From Natrinema halophilum (GTDB lineage: Archaea > Halobacteriota > Halobacteria > Halobacteriales > Natrialbaceae), in assembly GCF_013402815.2 (NCBI RefSeq), contig NZ_CP058601.1:1984001-2048000 (forward strand): a DNA stretch of 64,000 nt, given 5' to 3'. The notes below the pieces were generated by a model, which was not told where the DNA came from, searched no databases, and saw nothing but the letters and a program-made list of their open reading frames with translations. Numbering within the stretch: the stretch's first letter is position 1; every line of letters begins with the position of its first letter. Below are positions 15,018 through 63,332 of the stretch, piece after piece. Position numbers and translations under genes: made by a program.

Positions 15018-15099
15018 GCCAGGATGGCCGAACGGTAAGGCGCACGCCTGGAAAGCGTGTTCCCTTTCGGGATTCAGGGTTCAAATCCCTGTCCTGGCG
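15018..15099 (+). tRNA. tRNA-Ser (anticodon GGA)
   Basis: An 82-nt cloverleaf. Acceptor arms GCCAGGA and TCCTGGC pair fully. The D-arm stem is GCC/GGC. The anticodon stem CACGC/GCGTG closes the loop CTGGAAA (anticodon GGA). A long variable arm (CCC-TTTC-GGG) is the class II mark of serine. The T-arm is CAGGG-TTCAAAT-CCCTG with discriminator G, and CCA is not encoded. Its 3' end is the integration site of the element that follows: 15 bp from 15086 are repeated at 29285. Confidence 0.97.
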
Positions 15100-15100
15100 T
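15086..15100 (+). repeat. attL: 3' end of tRNA-Ser
   Basis: The 15-bp sequence tccctgtcctggcgt, spanning the T-arm and acceptor 3' strand of tRNA-Ser, is exactly repeated at 29285-29299. Together they bracket the integrase-bearing element. Confidence 0.82.
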
Positions 15101-15173: not shown

Positions 15174-18100
15174 GTGGTCTGCGTGACGATTCCGCCGGCA
15201 CAGCAGTGCACGCTGCCAAGCTGTGAAGAGGAAGCCGTCGACCCAACTAACCCCGGCGCCCTCTGCCAGAATCATCTTGGCGGACTCGAGTCGGAGGAAC
15301 CTGTCACGAAACCCGACGAGTCGGACGGATCGGACCCCCTTTGCGACACCTCTCCAGTTGTAGATACATCACATGTACAACGAATAGAGACCATCCCGTC
15401 GCCACTCGACGAACTCGGTGAGGCGTTCATCCCGTTTGACCCCGGCGAGAAGGGTGCACGCCGATCGCGGACCTCAGAGCACCTGCTTGCGCCTGACGAC
15501 CCAGTTCTTGAGGCATACCTCGAGGCAGGCCACAACTACGGTGTCGTCACGCGCGGCGATCTGGCCGTCGTCGACGCGGACGAACCCGAGCGCCTTCGGG
15601 GGTTGCTCGACGCACTTCCGGCGACCGCGTGGCAGGTGTCCGGTTCGCGAACGAGCGAGCACTACTTCCTTCGCGTGCCCGGTCTCGATGCTGACCTCCC
15701 ACTCGTTGATCCCGATTCCGGCGCCGAACTCGGTCACATCAAGGGTGCCGAACAGTCCTATGTCGTTGGTCCAGGGTCCCGCCACCCGTCGGGCAACCGA
15801 TACGGCCCTCTCGAGGGTGACGCGATCGCGACCGTCGACGAAGACGAACTCCGCGAGTTGATCGACCCCTTCCGTCCGGGCGACGTCGACCGCGACCGGG
15901 TACCAACGGACCTGGAGAGAGCTCGGAACGCCAACGCTGGAGATTCTACCGGCCTCTCTGTTCATGACGTACTCTCTCGACGGCGCTACCCCGAAAGTGA
16001 GCGTCGCGACCACCCGTTCCACGGTTCCGACACGGGGGCGAACTTCATGGTGGACGATGGTGGTGACACCTGGCGCTGCTGGCGACACGGGTGTACCGGC
16101 AACGCGCTCCACCTCGTTGGCATTGAGCAGGGCGTTATCAGCTGTGGCGACTGGAAGCACACCGGGCTCAACACCGACACTTGGCGCGACGTCTTCACCG
16201 CCGCCCGTGACGCGGGATATGATCTACCGGAGCACGAGGGCGCCGGGGACGACGGTGTCGAACAGGTCGCCGCACTTCCCGATACTGAACTCCTGAAGGG
16301 TGCCGCATCGGGTTGGGACTGGCGTCATGCCGGCGCTCGGGAGGCCACTGAGGAGGACCTCCTCGAGCAGGCTCGGGGTCGAACGACGGAGAAGATCGCC
16401 GGCGCTATCGGAAGCGGTGACCGCGTCCTTGTCGAAGCACTCCCAACGCTCGGCAAGTCCTACGGCGCCGTGAAGGCCGCCGCCGAGACGGGAAACCCGG
16501 TGACGATACTCACCACTCGTGGGAACAAAGAGCAGTACGGACAGATCGAGGAGTGGTGTGAGAAGTTCGGTCTAACGCACAAACGGCTGCCGGCGTTCAC
16601 ACGCCACTGCGAGACCGCACGAGGAGACCACGGAGAGGATTGGAAGCAAACCGTTCTCGACTGGTACAATCGCGGTGCGACGCCGAAGCAGATCCACGCC
16701 CTCGCCGAGCAGGCTCACGGAAGCGAACTACCGTGCCAGCACGACGGTCAGTGTGAGCTCGCAAGCGCGTGGGACTTCGATCCCGACGAGCACCCGGACA
16801 CCGTCGGTGATGACGTCGAGAGCCGTCCGTGGGACGTCCTCATCGGGCACTACACACACGCCTACAAGTCGAAGGTGGTGCATGGGCGGACGGTACTGTT
16901 CGACGAGTTCGCTGAAGAGGCCTTTGAGCAGCGGCTCGACCACGGCATCGAGGGCGCGGTCTCGTACTTCCTCCAGCAGCACGAGCCGCTCCCCTTCGAC
17001 GACTACGCCGATCTCCTCGAGGGGCGCCACGACGATCAGCGCCGAGCGGACGCTCTCGCCTTCCTGGATGAGTACGGTATCGACTCCGATCCCACTGCTG
17101 TCCTCGGTGACCAAGCCGGTCACGCCGGGGCTCCGGCGGCGGTGTTCACCATCCTCGTCAGTGCGAAGGAGAACCTCGGTAACGGGTGGGAACGAGCAGA
17201 ACTCCCCGATGACCGTGTCGGGCTGTTCGATCGCGAAACCGGTGCCGTGTCAATTCTCTCGCCACCCGAGCTCACCTACACCAGTGCAGTCGTCGGTCTC
17301 GACGGCACCCCCACGCGGGAGCTGTGGGAACTCGTCCTCGGGGAACGCCTGAACCACACGCAGGTACTCACTGACGCCGAGCGACGGGAGTACCTTGCCG
17401 ATGGCCTCAACCTGAACCTCGTGCGGACGACCGAGGCGATCAAGCCCTACAACAACCCGGATCACGTCGCGGTCGACCGCGACCTCGCGCTCCTGGACGC
17501 GATCGCCGAGCAGCACGATACCAAGCCCGGCGTCATCACCTCAAGGAGGGCTCTCGATGTCTATTCAGATGCCGGTGCAATCGAGTACGACCCGGAGAGC
17601 GGCGACGTCGACGATGGTCCAGCCGACCGCGTCGCGTGGTTCGGTAACGTCATCGGGAGCAACCGGTTCAAGGAAACCCGCGTCGGCGCCGTCATCGGAT
17701 CGAATCATTACGGTGACCGGTACATCCAGAAGTGGGGTGCCTACGCCGGCGAAGCTGTCGAAAGAGGTGATGGAAGAGGCGCTGATCTATCGTATGGTCG
17801 ACTCGGTGACAAAGTCCTCGCTCACATGCGGGAGCACGATACACTCCAGGCGGCGATGCGCTTCGGTCGCGACGGCAACGGCGCCGTCGTCTACGTTCAC
17901 ACCGATACGCTGCCAGAGTGGGTGCCGATCGCCGGCGAGGGGCGCGTCCTCTCCACCTGGAGCGACGGCATGCGGCAGGTGATCGACGTCGCGAACGAGC
18001 TGGGGGAGTGGACGACCGCCGAGATCGCCACCCACCCGGACGTCGAGATCGGCGAGCGGCAGGTGCGTGACCACCTGACCACGCTTGCAGAAAAGCACGG

Positions 18101-18380
18101 CGTCCTCGAGCGGCGAACTGAAGGCTGCGGGTTCGTCTGGCGTGACAGCGGACTCCATCGGATCGGTGAGCACGGTGACGTCGAACTCGAGCCGGTCGAA
18201 CTCGAGACGTTGACTGGCGAGGAAAGTGCGGAACTGGCACGTAGTAGTATCTATACGTGGGAGTTCCGGACTTCGCGACCGTCTCGGTCAGTGACTGCCC
18301 GAGCCACTGGCACAGCAGTCGATCGGTCGGCTAAAGCATCAACAAACGGAGGAGACCCGCCGCCAGATGATGGTGAATGA
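15174..18380 (+). CDS. Bifunctional primase-polymerase/helicase (replication protein)
   Basis: This is the 1068-aa replication protein of the element. Residues 10-35 hold a Cys/His cluster (CTLPSCEEE, CQNH). Residues 80-235 form a prim-pol domain: GEAFIPFDPGEKG, HNYGVVTRGDLAVVDADEP (acidic catalytic pair) and GPGSRHPSGNRYGPL. Residues 280-330 form a CHC2-like zinc segment (WRCWRHGCTGNALHL). The helicase part has the P-loop EALPTLGKSYGAVK (421-434) and a Walker B-like VLFDEFAEEA near 570. The C-terminus adds a winged helix (ATHPDVEIGERQVRDHL). The start is GTG 15174, with GTG 15183 possible. It resembles replication proteins of haloarchaeal plasmids and proviruses, so the element probably replicates when excised. 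Confidence 0.85.
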   Translation: MVCVTIPPAQQCTLPSCEEEAVDPTNPGALCQNHLGGLESEEPVTKPDESDGSDPLCDTSPVVDTSHVQRIETIPSPLDELGEAFIPFDPGEKGARRSRTSEHLLAPDDPVLEAYLEAGHNYGVVTRGDLAVVDADEPERLRGLLDALPATAWQVSGSRTSEHYFLRVPGLDADLPLVDPDSGAELGHIKGAEQSYVVGPGSRHPSGNRYGPLEGDAIATVDEDELRELIDPFRPGDVDRDRVPTDLERARNANAGDSTGLSVHDVLSRRRYPESERRDHPFHGSDTGANFMVDDGGDTWRCWRHGCTGNALHLVGIEQGVISCGDWKHTGLNTDTWRDVFTAARDAGYDLPEHEGAGDDGVEQVAALPDTELLKGAASGWDWRHAGAREATEEDLLEQARGRTTEKIAGAIGSGDRVLVEALPTLGKSYGAVKAAAETGNPVTILTTRGNKEQYGQIEEWCEKFGLTHKRLPAFTRHCETARGDHGEDWKQTVLDWYNRGATPKQIHALAEQAHGSELPCQHDGQCELASAWDFDPDEHPDTVGDDVESRPWDVLIGHYTHAYKSKVVHGRTVLFDEFAEEAFEQRLDHGIEGAVSYFLQQHEPLPFDDYADLLEGRHDDQRRADALAFLDEYGIDSDPTAVLGDQAGHAGAPAAVFTILVSAKENLGNGWERAELPDDRVGLFDRETGAVSILSPPELTYTSAVVGLDGTPTRELWELVLGERLNHTQVLTDAERREYLADGLNLNLVRTTEAIKPYNNPDHVAVDRDLALLDAIAEQHDTKPGVITSRRALDVYSDAGAIEYDPESGDVDDGPADRVAWFGNVIGSNRFKETRVGAVIGSNHYGDRYIQKWGAYAGEAVERGDGRGADLSYGRLGDKVLAHMREHDTLQAAMRFGRDGNGAVVYVHTDTLPEWVPIAGEGRVLSTWSDGMRQVIDVANELGEWTTAEIATHPDVEIGERQVRDHLTTLAEKHGVLERRTEGCGFVWRDSGLHRIGEHGDVELEPVELETLTGEESAELARSSIYTWEFRTSRPSRSVTARATGTAVDRSAKASTNGGDPPPDDGE

Positions 18381-22465: not shown

Positions 22466-22765
22466 ATGAGCACAGACACCGGTTCGAACGACTCTCCGCA
22501 CGGGGTAACGCGGATCACGCTCACCAAAGAGGACGAATGGTGGGTGGCGAAAGACGAAGAGACCGGCGTCGCGAGCCAGGGCAAGACGCGGACCGAGGCG
22601 CTCGACATGCTCGACGAGGCGGTCGCGCTCTATAACGGCGAAATCGGCGAGCCGATAGAGACGTGGGAAGAGGAGAAAGAGGTGCTGGAGGAGATCGGAC
22701 TCGACCCCGAAGAAGTGAAGGCGAATCGAGAAGCCGCTGACGGGCTTCCAGAGTTCATGCAGTAA
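22466..22765 (+). CDS. hicB: HicB-like antitoxin
   Basis: A 99-aa protein with the HicB partial RNase H-like fold: VTRITLTKEDEWWVAKDEET, then GVASQGKTRTEALDMLDEAV, the conserved glycine turn and helix. The acidic C-terminal helix (EEEKEVLEEIGLDPEEVKAN) is where HicB proteins carry their oligomerisation or operator-binding part. The antitoxin-first order, with HicA nine bases downstream, is a common arrangement in archaea. It neutralises HicA and probably autoregulates the pair. Confidence 0.85.
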   Translation: MSTDTGSNDSPHGVTRITLTKEDEWWVAKDEETGVASQGKTRTEALDMLDEAVALYNGEIGEPIETWEEEKEVLEEIGLDPEEVKANREAADGLPEFMQ

Positions 22766-22774
22766 CCGCGACAG

Positions 22775-23023
22775 ATGCCGACAACCGATTTTTCCGGACT
22801 CGATGTCGTGAAAGCCCTCACCAAAAACCGGTTCCGTGTCGTCGATCGCGAAGGGAGTCACGTAAAACTCCGGTACGTACACCCGACCAACTCCGACGAT
22901 GTCCGAGTGGTCTCGGTGCCGATGCACGACCGGATCAAACAGGGCACGTTGCGGAATATCGCCGAACAATCCGGTGCGAATGACTTTCACGCCTGGTGTG
23001 AGTGGGTCGATCGAAATCGGTAA
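22775..23023 (+). CDS. hicA: HicA-like mRNA interferase toxin
   Basis: An 82-aa dsRBD-fold toxin that cleaves mRNA when HicB is lost. SGLDVVKALTKNRFRVVDRE leads to H29 in GSHVKLRY, the catalytic His position. VSVPMHDRIKQGTLRNIAEQ is the second conserved block. Gene spacing and reading frame are intact, so the module is probably functional. Its place at the junction of the element's two arms suggests a maintenance role. Confidence 0.88.
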   Translation: MPTTDFSGLDVVKALTKNRFRVVDREGSHVKLRYVHPTNSDDVRVVSVPMHDRIKQGTLRNIAEQSGANDFHAWCEWVDRNR

Positions 23024-23093: not shown

Positions 23094-23336
23094 CTATTCC
23101 TCGGTCTCGTCCTGTTCGTCGACGGCGATCGGCTCCAGGACGTTTTCAACGTACCAGTCGAACTCACTGAGAGTGATTGACAGGCGTTCAACGTCTCCTG
23201 TTCGAAGGGCCTTCCCCTCCCTGAGGCGGTCTGCGATTTCGTAGCAGTCCTCGCAGACCGCGTCGCTTAGCTCGAGCGTTTCTCGGGGGACAGATCGGCG
23301 TGCAGCCGCTTCCCAGTCCGGGCTTTCTTCAGTCAT
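23094..23336 (-). CDS. Small helical protein, last gene of the leftward operon
   Basis: An 80-aa protein beginning MTEESPDWEAAARRSVPRE, whose ATG overlaps the end of the TnpB-like gene by 8 nt. A CEDC pair near residue 28 might bind metal but has no partner pair. The rest is helical with an acidic tail (EQDETEE). It reads leftward, converging on hicA. Its coupling to the nuclease suggests a shared function, but none can be assigned. Confidence 0.6.
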   Translation of the reverse strand: MTEESPDWEAAARRSVPRETLELSDAVCEDCYEIADRLREGKALRTGDVERLSITLSEFDWYVENVLEPIAVDEQDETEE

Positions 23337-23991
23337 CTTTCCCCCTGGCATCAGGTCTGCGTTTCGCGATCGAGACAGCAGCACTTCGGTCGCGGTCGAC
23401 AACGTCGACGGGACACGACTCGGTCGTGCACTCGAGCCCGGCGCTATCCACATCCCCCAGTTGATCGCACACGTGGCACTGCTGTGTGGTGTACTTCGGG
23501 TTGATGTATTCCACATCGTAGTCTTCGGCGACCGCTGCATCCGCGAATGCATGCTGTAACACCGGAAGTAGCCACGACCCCAGGTCAGTTTCACCCCGCC
23601 GGCACTCTGACAGCGGTCGGAGGGGGTAGGTGATTTCCTCGAGGACGACGGTCCCGGCGTCGGTGGCCTCGAGGTAAGCGAGCAGCTGCTCCGTAGCATC
23701 GGCAACACGGACGGCGAGGCGATCTCGATACGCCACGAACGCGTGAACTTCGGCGGCTGTTGTATCGCCGGGAAGTGCCTGCAGCCGGCGGGTCGTCGCA
23801 CCAAGCTCATCGTAGAGGGCACGTACTATCCCCCCGTCGGCGATGTAGGCGTTCCTAACAGTCGGGTCGGCGGTGATCGGCGATGCAGCGAACAGCTGAC
23901 GAACGCCGAGGTCAACCCCGACGCGTCGATCGGCGCCGGTCGCGGTTCCCACCGGTCGGACAGAGACCGGCGTAGAGGAGTCGGTACTCAT
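23329..23991 (-). CDS. RuvC-only TnpB-like nuclease, not in an IS
   Basis: A 220-aa protein carrying the whole TnpB/Cas12-type RuvC core but little else. RuvC-I is VGVDLGVRQLFA (D27), RuvC-II is TVVLEEITYPL (E118) and RuvC-III is VVDRDRSAAVSIAKR (D199/D201). A target-nucleic-acid-binding zinc finger is present: C172, C175, C188, C193. RuvC-I begins at residue 24, so the roughly 170-residue WED/REC part that binds omega-RNA and TAM in TnpB is absent. There is no tnpA, no IS ends and no adjacent omega-RNA. The start at 23991 overlaps the upstream stop (ATGA), and the stop overlaps the next gene. It looks like a domesticated, operon-integrated nuclease with intact catalytic residues. Confidence 0.75.
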   Translation of the reverse strand: MSTDSSTPVSVRPVGTATGADRRVGVDLGVRQLFAASPITADPTVRNAYIADGGIVRALYDELGATTRRLQALPGDTTAAEVHAFVAYRDRLAVRVADATEQLLAYLEATDAGTVVLEEITYPLRPLSECRRGETDLGSWLLPVLQHAFADAAVAEDYDVEYINPKYTTQQCHVCDQLGDVDSAGLECTTESCPVDVVDRDRSAAVSIAKRRPDARGKDD

Positions 23992-24293
23992 CGGCTCACC
24001 CACTCCTCTCGGTCGGCTGGACCGTAGGCCACGAGCTCGTTGAGGAAGCTCTCGAGTTCGCTCAGTGTCCGGAAGGTCTCAAGGTTCAGCGTCTCGACAA
24101 AGGCACCCTCGGGGCTGTAGATCGACCACACTCGGGGGCCGCTCTCGTGATGGTGGCTTTCGAGATGGAAGCCGTGGTGGTCGAGAATTACTCCAGGTGG
24201 GAATGCTCCCTCGAGCATCTCCCGGTAGAAATCGAGCCCGCCACGGTACAGGTCGGGACGTGGGGCGATCACGATGTCCGGGTCTTCGGTCAT
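23988..24293 (-). CDS. Element protein of unknown function, His-rich loop
   Basis: A 101-aa protein beginning MTEDPDIVIAPRPDLYRG. The middle carries LDHHGFHLESHHHESG, a dense His/Glu cluster that could bind metal, then PRVWSIYSPEGAFVETLNLE and a C-terminal helix (LSELESFLNELVAYG). No family is recognised. It is coupled to both neighbours by ATGA overlaps and directly precedes the TnpB-like gene. Confidence 0.62.
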   Translation of the reverse strand: MTEDPDIVIAPRPDLYRGGLDFYREMLEGAFPPGVILDHHGFHLESHHHESGPRVWSIYSPEGAFVETLNLETFRTLSELESFLNELVAYGPADREEWVSR

Positions 24294-24799
24294 CGCGAAC
24301 GCCCACCTCCAGTAGTATCCGCGGTGTCCACAGCTGGGCGACCCGTGGCCCCGTCGTCGCCGGCGGTGGTGTCAGCGTTTCGCTCGGTGGCGTGTTGCTC
24401 GTGGCGGTACCGGAGCGTCATCTCCTCGATCGTCTTCTTACAGCTGAGGAATTCGCGGACGTCGTCGTCGAACAGTGCGTTCAGGTCGACGTCTCCCATC
24501 GCAAGCGTGACGTCGCACAGCCTGTCAGCGGCTCGCTCGAGGGTCTCGGAATCACTCATCAGATTCCCCCCGTTCCCACCGGCGGAAGTTCGTGGTGGCC
24601 TATCCTCGTCCGTCTCGTGAGTCTCGTCGGCCGCAACCCGGCCCTCAGTTTCCGGGGCCGTGACGGCCTTGGCACGTTCGATCTCCTCGAACTCGGCCTG
24701 AATCCGCTCCTCAGGCCACTCCTCAACGCGGTCAGTACGCCGGCCGCGATCGCGAGGTCGGACTCGAGGACCACCGAGTGGGCTTCGCCACGCCGTCAT
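24290..24799 (-). CDS. Element protein of unknown function, possibly two genes in one frame
   Basis: One open frame of 169 codons from ATG 24799, which overlaps the preceding stop (ATGA). The first 25 residues are Arg-rich (PRVRPRDRGRRTDR), then acidic helical sequence (EERIQAEFEEIERAKAVTAP). An internal ATG at 24559 (MSDSETLERAADRLCDVTLA) opens a more compact helical part with EFLSCKKTIEEMTLRYRHEQ, so an 89-aa product starting there is an alternative. The C-terminus is Gly/Thr/Asp low complexity. The function is unknown. Confidence 0.55.
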   Translation of the reverse strand: MTAWRSPLGGPRVRPRDRGRRTDRVEEWPEERIQAEFEEIERAKAVTAPETEGRVAADETHETDEDRPPRTSAGGNGGNLMSDSETLERAADRLCDVTLAMGDVDLNALFDDDVREFLSCKKTIEEMTLRYRHEQHATERNADTTAGDDGATGRPAVDTADTTGGGRSR

Positions 24800-25056
24800 T
24801 GGTCCCCTCCCTCTTCGCTTTCGTCACCATCGGCCTCTCCGGGCTGCAACTCTCGAGCTCGGTCGACTACTTCCGCCTCGAGGTATTTCATCGCCCGCTT
24901 GTGCTTCGAGACCGCGTCGACGAGGGTGTGGCCCTTCGCCTTGATGGTGTGGACGTCCTGGTCTCGCGTGCCGGTTCCACGCGTCAGTTTCGACGTGATC
25001 GAGACACCGGTATCGGTCCGCTCAACGAGCTGGTCCGCGTCGACGTCGTCGGTCAT
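24796..25056 (-). CDS. Small protein conserved in haloarchaeal elements
   Basis: An 86-aa protein starting MTDDVDADQLVERTDTGVSI, with its ATG overlapping the stop of the SWIM gene. A short beta part (VSITSKLTRGTGTRDQDVHT) is followed by a long helix (DAVSKHKRAMKYLEAEVVDR) and an acidic tail. The VERTDTGVSI...KLTRGTGTRDQD signature recurs in haloarchaeal mobile elements, without a known role. Confidence 0.65.
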   Translation of the reverse strand: MTDDVDADQLVERTDTGVSITSKLTRGTGTRDQDVHTIKAKGHTLVDAVSKHKRAMKYLEAEVVDRARELQPGEADGDESEEGGDQ

Positions 25057-25631
25057 CGGTCGCTCACCTCGGCAAACCGGCATCCGTCACGGTGGGTGAC
25101 GAGGTCGCGGTCGATGTCCTCGTGAACCTCGCGGCTGCAGTCTCGGCACTGGTAGTATCGCGCACCGGTCGGTTCGCCGTACTTGTCGTATTCGACGTGA
25201 GGGCCGTCCCACGGATCGACGTCGTCGCTCTCGAGGATCTCGGCATCGTCGCCGGCGATCGCCCCGGTCACGCCACCGTCGGACGTCGCGACGCGCGGGC
25301 CGTTGGCGTGTTCGCCCAGGCGGGGGTCGACGTCCAACTCGGCGAGGGTCCTCGCGTCGACCGTCTCGTGTCCCATCGCGATCCGCGCACGGCGGACGTG
25401 TTTGCACCCACCGTCGGGGTGGCGGTACTCCGAGTCGGGGCACTCACACACGCCCTCGCGGACGTCCACGAGGTACTCCTTGCCGCTCTGTGAGGTGACA
25501 AGGGTCAGGTCATCGGCGCCGCGAGCCCGGCCGATCTCGGGCGTGACAGTCAGATACTCCTCGAGAGCGCGGACGTCGCGCTCGTCGAGCGTGTCGATAC
25601 ATTCTTCCGCTGCTTTGTCGTAGTTCGTCAT
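25053..25631 (-). CDS. SWIM zinc-finger protein
   Basis: A 192-aa protein, first gene of the leftward operon. VREGVCECPDSEYRH with GGCKHVRRARIA (about residues 57-85) is a SWIM motif (CxCx(n)CxH), which binds nucleic acid or protein. A second Cys/His cluster near the C-terminus (YYQCRDCSREVHEDI, then THRDGC) looks like another zinc site. Between them is a low-complexity acidic linker. SWIM proteins of this size are frequent in haloarchaeal plasmids and viruses. ATG 25631 faces the winged-helix gene at 25836 across a shared control region. Confidence 0.78.
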   Translation of the reverse strand: MTNYDKAAEECIDTLDERDVRALEEYLTVTPEIGRARGADDLTLVTSQSGKEYLVDVREGVCECPDSEYRHPDGGCKHVRRARIAMGHETVDARTLAELDVDPRLGEHANGPRVATSDGGVTGAIAGDDAEILESDDVDPWDGPHVEYDKYGEPTGARYYQCRDCSREVHEDIDRDLVTHRDGCRFAEVSDR

Positions 25632-25737: not shown

Positions 25738-25827
25738 TGCAAAGGCTTAAAGGTTGTCCTTTGCAAGGTTCTGCAAAGGACTTATTACAGATAGCCACCA
25801 AATCACTAATGCAGATGGATGCAAAGG
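25738..25827. promoter_or_regulatory. TGCAAAGG operator array in a divergent promoter region
   Basis: The 8-mer TGCAAAGG occurs three times in direct orientation (25738-25745, 25772-25779, 25820-25827) and once inverted as CCTTTGCA (25758-25765), all within 90 bases between the divergent SWIM operon and the winged-helix gene. Spacing between sites is 34, 14 and 48 bases. An AT-rich cttattac near 25781 could be the rightward TATA element. Repression by the adjacent regulator is inference. Confidence 0.7.
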
Positions 25828-25835
25828 TCCAAATA

Positions 25836-26069
25836 ATGGCCGATCGCGACGATGACTCGGGGCGGTACACGGAAACCTTCCCGCTCGAAGAATTCACAGA
25901 AGCGCTCAAGAACCTTGGAGGTTCAGCCGGGACTCAAGAGGTTGCCGACGAAGTTGGATGTAAGTATCGTACAGCGAACGCAAAGCTCCACGAGCTCAAG
26001 GAACGTGGAGAGGTGACCGCTCGTAAGGTCGGAAACGCCTATCTCTGGATGATTGATGGTGGGGGATGA
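25836..26069 (+). CDS. Winged-helix regulator of the element
   Basis: A 77-aa DNA-binding protein. ATG 25836 gives MADRDDDSGRYTETFPLEEF, the opening typical of this haloarchaeal family; in-frame ATGs at 25809 and 25815 exist. The helix-turn-helix is GTQEVADEVGCKYRTANAKL, followed by the wing ERGEVTARKVGNAYLWM. It is divergent from the six-gene leftward operon, with the TGCAAAGG array between them, so it is the likely autoregulator of both. Confidence 0.82.
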   Translation: MADRDDDSGRYTETFPLEEFTEALKNLGGSAGTQEVADEVGCKYRTANAKLHELKERGEVTARKVGNAYLWMIDGGG

Positions 26070-26508: not shown

Positions 26509-27129
26509 TCAGCTTTCGGACTCGAGTTTCAACTGCATGATCTTTGCATACTCCTCGTTATTCAGGTCACCCCGTCGAAAAAGTAGATCGAGCATACGAC
26601 GGGGGAGGGTCGCGAGTTCCTCGTCGGTCATATCGCCTGTGGAGTCGCCGAGAGACACCACCAGCTCGTTTGTCACTTCTTCCGGGACGCGGTCATCGCC
26701 CCGAAATTCAATCGCGGTACTCACTCCCTTTTCTACCTGGTTATTGAACGATTTGGTCACTCGAGCCAAGTGTTCTTCAGACGAATACTCCTTGTCTGGC
26801 GAGGACAGGAATTCTCTGACGTCGGTCTCATTGGTGAACATCGGCCGTTTCTGTGCCCACAGATACAACATCGCTGCAAGTGGCCAGGCCGGGGGCGCCT
26901 CTTCACCATCCGAATCCTCGTCCCTTTTAAATATCTCTTCCAGTTCGTTCTCATCCAAGTATTCAACGAGAACTTTGAGGTCGAGTAAACCGTTCCGTGC
27001 ACGCTCCCGAATCGCGTTACGTCGCTTGGTTCTGGCCGGTGGACTATATATGCTGTTGCGTCTAACCTCGCCCATTTCGAGGTATTCCCGATCACTGTCA
27101 GTCAGTATTCCGCGTGGTCGATTAACCAT
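26509..27129 (-). CDS. Uncharacterised haloarchaeal family protein (element paralogue)
   Basis: A 206-aa protein from ATG 27129. The N-terminus NRPRGILTDSDREYLEMG and the following basic helix TKRRNAIRERARNGLLDLKV align with the host protein at 62685 (DRPRGILTPSDRDFLLG; KQKRNRIRRRVRNAILDFSI). The two are members of one family, with one copy carried by the element. The C-terminus is helical (MTDEELATLPRRMLDLLFRR). No catalytic residues stand out. The basic N-terminal helices suggest nucleic-acid binding. The gene lies alone on the minus strand in AT-richer DNA. Confidence 0.75.
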   Translation of the reverse strand: MVNRPRGILTDSDREYLEMGEVRRNSIYSPPARTKRRNAIRERARNGLLDLKVLVEYLDENELEEIFKRDEDSDGEEAPPAWPLAAMLYLWAQKRPMFTNETDVREFLSSPDKEYSSEEHLARVTKSFNNQVEKGVSTAIEFRGDDRVPEEVTNELVVSLGDSTGDMTDEELATLPRRMLDLLFRRGDLNNEEYAKIMQLKLESES

Positions 27130-27981: not shown

Positions 27982-29232
27982 TCAGCTGTCAGCGTCGACC
28001 GCGTCGACGAACTGCCGTGCAGTTTCAATGACGTCCGGATCACCACCGAGCGCTTCGACGAGCGGCTCGAGGTCCTCCAGGCTGGCGAGGAGTTCGGGAT
28101 GTTCCTTCGCGAGTCCGAGGAGTTGTCGCCGTTGCTCGTCCTGCTCCCGTTCGATCTCGTCGACGGCACCATGCTCGAGGGCTTGGTGGCACCACATGCA
28201 GAACGGTTCGTGTCGCGGGGTTTCCTTTTCACACCGGTCACACACAACAGCAGCCGTGGGTTCGGGTTCGTCGACTTCGACGTCGAGTCCGTGAGCACGG
28301 GCGAGCTCGCGATCACTCGCTTCAGCGAAGACCGAGATGTATCGAGAAGCCGCTTTGCTCCCGCGGGTCCATCCGTGGTGATCCTCGAGGACGGCCTGGT
28401 TCACGCCCTGACTCGCAAGGTGGCTCGCCGAGGACTTGCGGAAGTTCGTGAAGGTGACGGGCTTAGTGATGCCTGCACGTTCGGCTGCTTTTTTAGGGAT
28501 CTTCGCCGCCATCTGGTACGACATCTCTTCGCCGTTCTGAAGTTTGCACCACAGCAGCGCGTTGGGGTCGTCACTCCGAGGGTGGTCGGTCAGCCAGCGG
28601 TTGAGGTACGGAACCGACGTGATGAGCGTGATCGAGCGCTGTCCCTTCTTTCCGTCGACGGTGATCTGGAGACCGTGTTTGTGGTCGGTGACGTCGCCGA
28701 CAGTGAGCCCGAGAAGCTCGCCCGAGCGCGGGCCGCCGTCCCATGCGACTGCAATCAGGGCGGCGTCGCGGGCGTTCATCGTCGCGTCAATCATCGGGCG
28801 GACGTCTTCGTCCCACTCGAGCATGTCGCCCGGATCCGGGATCGGGTTGTAGTTCGACGACGTGCCGGTCGGGATCCACTCGAGACTCTCTGGGACGTCG
28901 TCGCCGGGAGTGAGGAAACGACCGAAGGCACGGAGGGCGTTGCGATTGTCCTTGTTGCTTTCGACGTTGTCGTATTCCTGGTGGATGACACGGACAACGT
29001 GCTCGGCGGCTTCGCGATCGTCGAGGACGTCCGCCAGGCCGTCACTTCGTTCGGCGAGGATTGTGCAGTGACGGAGCAGCTTCTCGTGGCGAGCGACACC
29101 GATCCGCGACGGGACGAGGGCCAGGGCCTTGCTGAAGTCGAGGAGCAGCTCACGATCGGCGTCGGAGACGTCACGCTCGCCGTCTTCGATCTGTTCGACG
29201 AGACGGTCGAGCGCGAGTTGCTTGTCGGGCAT
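27982..29232 (-). CDS. Tyrosine recombinase/integrase with zinc ribbon
   Basis: A 416-aa site-specific recombinase. The SAM-like core-binding part spans about residues 25-120. The catalytic domain shows R169 in GGPRSGELLGL, R265 in TNFRKSSASHLA, H286 in DHHGW and the nucleophile Y298 in SRYISVF. The usual His before Arg II is replaced (TNFR). After the catalytic domain comes a zinc ribbon, CDRCEKETPRHEPFCMWC, common in haloarchaeal integrases. It lies 53 bases inside the right copy of the tRNA-Ser repeat and reads inwards. It is expected to integrate and excise the element. Confidence 0.92.
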   Translation of the reverse strand: MPDKQLALDRLVEQIEDGERDVSDADRELLLDFSKALALVPSRIGVARHEKLLRHCTILAERSDGLADVLDDREAAEHVVRVIHQEYDNVESNKDNRNALRAFGRFLTPGDDVPESLEWIPTGTSSNYNPIPDPGDMLEWDEDVRPMIDATMNARDAALIAVAWDGGPRSGELLGLTVGDVTDHKHGLQITVDGKKGQRSITLITSVPYLNRWLTDHPRSDDPNALLWCKLQNGEEMSYQMAAKIPKKAAERAGITKPVTFTNFRKSSASHLASQGVNQAVLEDHHGWTRGSKAASRYISVFAEASDRELARAHGLDVEVDEPEPTAAVVCDRCEKETPRHEPFCMWCHQALEHGAVDEIEREQDEQRRQLLGLAKEHPELLASLEDLEPLVEALGGDPDVIETARQFVDAVDADS

Positions 29233-29284: not shown

Positions 29285-29299
29285 TCCCTGTCCTGGCGT
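29285..29299 (+). repeat. attR: duplicate of the tRNA-Ser 3' end
   Basis: An exact 15-bp copy of tccctgtcctggcgt from the 3' end of tRNA-Ser (15086-15100), with no tRNA body attached. It marks the right boundary of the integrated element. Confidence 0.82.
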
Positions 29300-62684: not shown

Positions 62685-63332
62685 ATGAGCCAGGACGATG
62701 TGCCGGAGTCGCTCAAGACAGCGGCGGACTCGGACCGTCCGCGCGGTATTCTTACTCCCTCCGACCGCGACTTCTTGCTCGGGCGCAAGACCGACTACAC
62801 CGACCACTCGAAGAAACAGAAGCGAAACCGAATTCGGCGCCGGGTTCGGAACGCGATTCTCGACTTCAGTATCCTCTTCGAATACATGGAAGAGCGTGAT
62901 CGAGAGACGGTCTTCGATCCGAACGACGACGAACGAGACGCGTACACGCAGGGAATCACCGACATGCTGGCGTTTCTCCATCTCGGGACGATGGGCTACT
63001 ATACCCCGTTCAAGGATATGCTCTCGGAGGGGGTCGGGAAGGCAGAACAGCGCCTCGCGGGCTCGAACTACCGGATGGTCAACGTCGAATTCAACGTCGA
63101 GCCCGTCGGCCAGATCAACGTCGACGAAGTCATCGAGAAACTCGAAAACGAGGAGTTCGCCCAGCTCACCGACGAGGAACTCCGCGCATTCGTCCGGTTG
63201 CTGACGATGTCCGACGCGTTTTCTCCGGAGGATACCCGCGAAGAGATCAAGGATCGCGTCGACGAGTTTGCCGACCGAGTGACCGAGAGTGCCACGTCCC
63301 GCAAACAGACGTTCGAAGAAATGACGGACTAA
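62685..63332 (+). CDS. Uncharacterised haloarchaeal family protein (host copy)
   Basis: A 215-aa protein starting MSQDDVPESLKTAADSDRPR, with a TATA-like gttaattta 23-31 bases before the ATG. Residues 18-65 (RPRGILTPSDRDFLLG; KQKRNRIRRRVRNAILDFSI) match the element gene at 26509. The middle is helical (ITDMLAFLHLGTMGYYTPFK). VNVEFNVEPVGQINVDEVIE forms a beta hairpin, and the C-terminus is acidic helix (LTDEELRAFVRLLTMSDAFS). Basic N-terminal helices suggest DNA or RNA contact. No function is known. Confidence 0.75.
   Translation: MSQDDVPESLKTAADSDRPRGILTPSDRDFLLGRKTDYTDHSKKQKRNRIRRRVRNAILDFSILFEYMEERDRETVFDPNDDERDAYTQGITDMLAFLHLGTMGYYTPFKDMLSEGVGKAEQRLAGSNYRMVNVEFNVEPVGQINVDEVIEKLENEEFAQLTDEELRAFVRLLTMSDAFSPEDTREEIKDRVDEFADRVTESATSRKQTFEEMTD

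What the first reader, a model, noticed from the sequence alone, without database searches (positions are those of the whole stretch)
23329..23991. RuvC-only TnpB-like nuclease domesticated inside a six-gene operon
The protein keeps D27, E118 and D199/D201 plus the four-Cys zinc finger of TnpB, but starts about 170 residues too late to carry the WED/REC RNA-binding half. It has no TnpA, no IS ends and no adjacent omega-RNA. Overlaps on both sides fix it in an operon. A catalytically complete but guide-less TnpB core suggests a repurposed nuclease for element defence, replication or DNA processing.
Basis: partly seen in the sequence, partly recalled or inferred. Interest (0 to 1): 0.78.

Follow-up and report, generated by a model that had tools for sequence, protein, structure and literature searches.

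The report
Guide-less TnpB-like nuclease in haloarchaeal elements
A small haloarchaeal mobile element carries a gene for just the DNA-cutting half of TnpB, the ancestor of a CRISPR enzyme, with the RNA-guiding half gone; relatives of this stripped-down protein are conserved in many haloarchaeal elements, some joined to a CRISPR-like gene cluster, so a programmable nuclease seems to have been reused without its own guide.

Summary
Window 23991-23329 (-) encodes a 220-aa protein that is only the RuvC + zinc-finger (TNB) half of TnpB/Cas12f, in a six-gene overlapping operon of a 14.2-kb element integrated at tRNA-Ser. It is not a broken IS copy. About 25 haloarchaeal loci encode the same stand-alone form. 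Nearly all are 205-260 aa, they form one weakly supported clade apart from sampled full-length TnpBs, dN/dS is about 0.2, and D27, E118, D201 and the four cysteines are invariant. D199 is not. An AlphaFold model matches Cas12f/TnpB RuvC. The RuvC helices that bind omega-RNA in TnpB persist at unchanged spacing but have lost half of their basic residues, supporting loss of guiding.

In one branch the nuclease gene overlaps the first gene of HRAMP, an array-less type III CRISPR derivative. The window copy is not linked to HRAMP.

Best reading: a guide-independent TnpB-derived nuclease used in element-host or element-element conflict, recruited by partners, once by HRAMP. Activity and target are untested.

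The parts
23329..23991 (-). Stand-alone RuvC + TNB protein (220 aa), catalytic D27, E118, D201; zinc ligands C172, C175, C188, C193
23988..24293 (-). F1, 101-aa partner gene, ATGA overlap with the RuvC gene; strong homologues occur only directly upstream of it; fold not identified
24290..24799 (-). 169-aa protein of unknown function, operon gene 3
24796..25059 (-). DUF7389 protein (87 aa; GTG start at 25083 possible), operon gene 2
   Evidence: E 2.5e-22
25053..25631 (-). SWIM-type zinc-finger protein (192 aa, phrog_17897), first gene of the accessory operon
   Evidence: (SWIM, just below cut-off, in homologue L058)
23094..23336 (-). 80-aa protein, last operon gene, 8-nt overlap with the RuvC gene
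25809..26069 (+). Divergent winged-helix regulator at the operon head (phrog_18890)
27982..29232 (-). Tyrosine integrase of the element
15174..18380 (+). Prim-Pol replication protein (1068 aa) of the element
   Evidence: PF09250 E 5e-10
15086..15100 (.). attL in the 3' end of tRNA-Ser (TCCCTGTCCTGGCGT)
29285..29299 (.). attR, exact 15-nt copy
22466..23023 (+). DUF7387 antitoxin-like gene + HicA toxin pair

Best explanation
The gene encodes a metal-dependent RuvC-family nuclease derived from TnpB that has lost the RNA-guiding WED/REC half. It is cargo of an accessory operon of haloarchaeal plasmids and integrated elements. It most likely cuts or nicks DNA in conflicts between the element and its host or rival elements, without a guide RNA of its own; specificity would come from partner proteins (the translationally coupled F1 protein in part of the family; the HRAMP Cas7/Cas5-like complex in one branch) or from DNA structure. 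Shown by sequence: family, fold, intact catalytic and zinc sites, absence of WED/REC, erosion of the RNA-binding surface, purifying selection, operon and cargo context. Inferred: nuclease activity, guide independence, partners, and the conflict role.
For: About 25 loci with a stand-alone form and no upstream WED/REC extension; the mini proteins fall on one side of a branch from full-length haloarchaeal TnpBs (support 77/97); dN/dS 0.19-0.28 for ten pairs; invariant D27/E118/D201 and four Cys; model pLDDT 79.6, best PDB matches Cas12f E 1e-9, TnpB 1e-5. D-to-E spacing unchanged (91 in most; 93 in the window protein) but Lys+Arg in the intervening helices 8.8% against 16.8% in haloarchaeal full-length TnpB, no overlap between groups, p 4e-7 treating proteins as independent; in TnpB these helices bind omega-RNA through basic residues (PMC10097598). 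The same operon type elsewhere carries ArdC-like antirestriction, PLD nuclease plus GmrSD, ParB-like genes, or HRAMP.
Against: No activity data. The operon also carries ParB-like and many unknown small genes, so a maintenance role fits too. F1 is missing in the more diverged members. The tree compares only the nearest full-length TnpBs and has long branches. The Lys/Arg test compares related proteins, so the p value overstates the independence.
Confidence: 0.5

Rival explanations
1. It is the nuclease subunit of HRAMP, the array-less haloarchaeal type III derivative, acting in cis where linked and in trans elsewhere.
For: In about 12 loci of one subclade the RuvC gene directly precedes RAMP1-hU-RAMP2 or their remnants, stop and start overlapping by 8 nt in most intact cases; on the Halomicrobium urmianum plasmid no other annotated nuclease lies in the island, apart from a transposase. 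HRAMP is known to associate with different nucleases, mostly HNH and PD-(D/E)xK (PMC12669027). The window's genome has two HRAMP loci elsewhere.
Against: The window operon has no RAMP gene. Outside that subclade only 2 of 8 genomes with the gene that were in the sample also have HRAMP, no more than the 27% background, and most HRAMP loci lack the gene. The corresponding position in HRAMP loci without it holds mostly small unknown proteins, not recognisable nucleases.
Confidence: 0.17
2. It is a DNA-processing enzyme of the element itself, such as a structure-specific (Holliday-junction or replication-intermediate) nuclease working with the Prim-Pol and integrase.
For: Free RuvC folds of this size exist as junction resolvases, and the model also matches RuvC and Ydc2 weakly (E about 2e-3). 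Where context was readable the gene lies on plasmids or next to integrases and ParA genes.
Against: Specific similarity is to TnpB/Cas12f including the TNB zinc finger, not to resolvases. Most elements with the same operon do without it, unexpected for a core replication or integration function. No dimer interface was tested.
Confidence: 0.17
3. Split RNA-guided nuclease: WED/REC function is supplied in trans by F1 or another operon protein with an unrecognised guide RNA.
For: F1 overlaps the gene by ATGA and its strong homologues occur only there.
Against: F1 (about 104 aa) is smaller than WED+REC (about 176 aa), has no fold match and is absent from diverged members; basic residues for omega-RNA are depleted; no non-coding stretch adjoins the gene.
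Confidence: 0.05
4. A truncated IS copy (decaying TnpB).
For: Haloarchaea carry many TnpB genes; the window's genome has three ordinary ones.
Against: Conserved length, gene overlaps, purifying selection and a separate clade across many genera. Only some copies are broken, e.g. Halopiger.
Confidence: 0.02
5. A DNA-binding regulator or anti-defence decoy that no longer needs catalysis.
For: TnpB-derived regulators (TldR) are known (own knowledge of the literature); the operon carries several zinc-finger proteins.
Against: TldRs lose catalytic residues (own knowledge); here the triad is invariant in all 18 aligned members.
Confidence: 0.09

Closest known systems
TnpB (IS200/IS605, IS607; e.g. 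ISDra2 TnpB)
   Same: RuvC fold, D/E/D triad, TNB zinc finger, D-E spacing as in haloarchaeal TnpB
   Different: No WED or REC, depleted RNA-contacting basic residues, no tnpA or IS context seen, no 3' non-coding flank; NCBIfam guided_TnpB 36 bits against a cut-off of 100
Cas12f (type V-F) and V-U effectors
   Same: Best sequence-profile and fold matches
   Different: Half the size, no WED/REC, no CRISPR array-like repeats in the element
HRAMP (haloarchaeal RAMP, type III-derived, array-less)
   Same: One branch of the family is operonic with HRAMP-like genes; HRAMP is known to use varied nucleases (PMC8730458, PMC12669027)
   Different: The window copy and most subclades have no RAMP genes nearby; the original HRAMP paper (Makarova 2019) could not be read, so it is unknown here whether it lists a TnpB-like nuclease
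RuvC / Ydc2 Holliday-junction resolvases
   Same: Free-standing RNase H-like nuclease of about 150-240 aa
   Different: Weak fold match only (E about 2e-3); TNB zinc finger present here

Membership tests
TnpB RNA-guided endonuclease | RuvC catalytic triad D/E/D | tested here: met
   Invariant D27, E118, D201
TnpB RNA-guided endonuclease | TNB zinc finger | tested here: met
   PF07282 above cut-off; four invariant Cys
TnpB RNA-guided endonuclease | WED and REC domains for RNA and TAM binding | tested here: not met
   Protein starts about 164 residues late; no long upstream in-frame extension in the window; no WED/REC match to the upstream gene
TnpB RNA-guided endonuclease | Basic omega-RNA-contacting helices in RuvC | tested here: not met
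   Lys+Arg 8.8% vs 16.8%, no overlap
TnpB RNA-guided endonuclease | omega-RNA at the 3' end | tested here: inconclusive
   No Rfam match and no non-coding flank; expression data not available
TnpB RNA-guided endonuclease | Residence in an IS with ends or tnpA | tested here: not met
   Operonic with overlaps across loci; ends not searched exhaustively
HRAMP | Cas7/Cas5-like RAMP genes in the locus | tested here: not met
   None in the window operon; nearest HRAMP loci are elsewhere on the chromosome. Met in one subclade
Cas12 / type V CRISPR | CRISPR array or cas genes nearby | tested here: not met
   No direct repeats of 20 nt or more in the element
RuvC Holliday-junction resolvase | Junction cleavage as a dimer | not testable with these tools
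   Only weak fold similarity

The most novel reading that the evidence does not exclude
A TnpB-derived RuvC nuclease shed its RNA guide and became an exchangeable nuclease subunit that a class 1-like, array-less CRISPR derivative (HRAMP) recruited: a class 2-type cutter on a class 1-type scaffold, with the window copy belonging to the free-standing form carried by mobile elements.
Probability: 0.2. Interest if true: 0.85.

Novelty: new variant of a known kind. Interest (0 to 1): 0.6.

Why it matters
TnpB evolution is usually told as gain of domains and guides (Cas12) or loss of catalysis (TldR; own knowledge). A conserved family that did the reverse, keeping the catalytic site and dropping the guide half, would show that the RuvC-TNB core is a usable nuclease by itself, give a minimal enzyme for study, and, in the HRAMP-linked branch, make the open question of how HRAMP destroys its target directly testable.

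Tried and rejected
Truncated IS copy: rejected. WED/REC supplied by the upstream gene: Pfam and Foldseek gave nothing usable (F1 model pLDDT only 70.7). HRAMP as partner in trans for the window copy: co-occurrence outside the linked subclade is at background. 'Nuclease slot' of HRAMP: where this gene is absent the position holds mostly small unknown proteins. Degenerate copies of the gene upstream of other HRAMP loci: none found, only one full-length TnpB. Searches of IMG/VR found no close member. The first genome-contig scan with the window protein alone found nothing. The HRAMP discovery paper (fnz079) and the TnpB diversity paper (PMC10691335) are not held.

Full report
OBSERVATION. The ORF is real: 220 aa on the minus strand, Pfam Cas12f1-like_TNB just above its cut-off, NCBIfam guided_TnpB recognised at 36 bits but far below the curated 100. 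A profile of its family aligns end to end with the RuvC+TNB part of solved Cas12f and TnpB. In ISDra2 TnpB the WED is residues 1-12 and 117-176, REC 13-116, RuvC 185-326 and 360-375, TNB 327-359, with D191/E278/D361 catalytic (PMC10097598). The window protein therefore holds everything from RuvC-I to RuvC-III and nothing before it.

CONTEXT. The gene is the fifth of six overlapping minus-strand genes that start with a SWIM zinc-finger gene and face a divergent winged-helix regulator. The whole lies in a 14.2-kb element between exact 15-nt repeats, one in the 3' end of tRNA-Ser (15086-15100) and one at 29285-29299, with a tyrosine integrase and a Prim-Pol replication protein. No capsid or packaging gene was convincingly recognised among the proteins scanned, so it looks like an integrative plasmid or satellite; not every gene was scanned.

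FAMILY. The window's genome has one copy and three ordinary TnpBs at 27-29% identity. Across haloarchaea the closest matches (33-46%) have open frames of about 170-275 aa, while the next tier (about 33% and less) is dominated by full-length TnpBs of about 410-510 aa. Counting plasmid hits and named genomes there are about 25 loci, including Halomicrobium urmianum, Haloferax gibbonsii pHG4, Halarchaeum pCBA1220-04, Halomarina oriensis, Natribaculum breve, Haloarcula salina and four copies in Natrialba chahannaoensis. One Natrinema plasmid has the domain at the N-terminus of a 735-aa protein with a possible further zinc finger. Invariant residues include D27, E118, D201, W140 and the four cysteines; D199 varies. 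In a maximum-likelihood tree the mini proteins and the nearest full-length TnpBs fall on two sides of one branch (77/97), with several long branches, so a single origin is favoured, not proved. dN/dS is 0.19-0.28. Two copies have an internal stop and one a deletion fusing it to F1, so loss also occurs.

STRUCTURE AND GUIDE. The AlphaFold model (pLDDT 79.6, pTM 0.77) matches Cas12f best (8dzj E 1e-9, TMq 0.62) and TnpB (8h1j E 1.4e-5). TnpB recognises its omega-RNA through WED and through basic residues of RuvC helices 1 and 2. Those helices persist here at nearly the same D-to-E spacing (91-93), but Lys+Arg falls to 8.8% from 16.8% in haloarchaeal full-length TnpBs, without overlap between the groups (L040 was left out because its glutamate motif was mis-set by the script). 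This is independent of the missing domains and argues that guide binding was given up.

OPERON AS CARGO CARRIER. The SWIM gene occurs in 67 of 341 haloarchaeal genomes, and only a handful of its loci have the RuvC gene (comparison). In 20 such loci the neighbourhoods differ, with ArdC-like antirestriction (just under its Pfam cut-off), a PLD nuclease near a GmrSD restriction gene, and two ParB-like genes (the last from sequence appearance) among them. One further locus (L187) had a second RuvC copy. So the RuvC protein is one optional cargo. The ~104-aa F1 gene overlaps it by ATGA in the window and one large subclade; its strong homologues were found nowhere else, weak ones occur in other contexts.

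HRAMP BRANCH. In about 12 loci of one subclade (100/97) the next genes are two RAMPs (Csm3-like, PADLOC E 9e-5; Cmr3-like, 7e-8) around an unknown protein, or their remnants. This is the layout described for HRAMP, an array-less type III derivative with Cas5/Cas7 homologues and varied nucleases, most often HNH and PD-(D/E)xK (PMC8730458, PMC12669027). RAMP1 is present in 106 of 391 genomes, so most HRAMPs lack the RuvC gene, and outside the linked subclade co-occurrence is at background. HRAMP thus looks like cargo that joined this operon in one branch; whether the RuvC protein serves it is open.

VERDICT. A genuine, apparently undescribed family of guide-less TnpB derivatives with an intact catalytic site in haloarchaeal mobile elements. 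The absence of a description rests on the papers that could be searched, which miss most subscription journals. Function is inferred.

Noticed in passing
L038:3706-5538 and L094-L108 upstream of HRAMP: A divergent ~610-aa DDE transposase-like gene, or its remnants, lies upstream of HRAMP operons in 13 of 20 loci (33-68% identity to the L038 copy), hinting that HRAMP may travel with it.
   Followed up: partly
G000:C1:313419-314276 and 3864676-3865503 (L094, L095): The window's own genome carries two different HRAMP loci outside the window.
   Followed up: partly
L041:4986-7193: Natrinema sp. DC36 plasmid protein of 735 aa with the mini RuvC domain at its N-terminus and a long cysteine-rich C-terminal part of unknown function.
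   Followed up: no
window 22466-23023: HicA toxin with a DUF7387 partner in the same element.
   Followed up: no
L115, L118-L120: Natrialba chahannaoensis has four copies of the mini RuvC gene, several with decayed HRAMP genes behind them.
   Followed up: no
window 26509-27129 and 62685-63332: Two similar-looking proteins (RGILT.SDR... near the start), one inside and one outside the element, seen in the ORF list.
   Followed up: no
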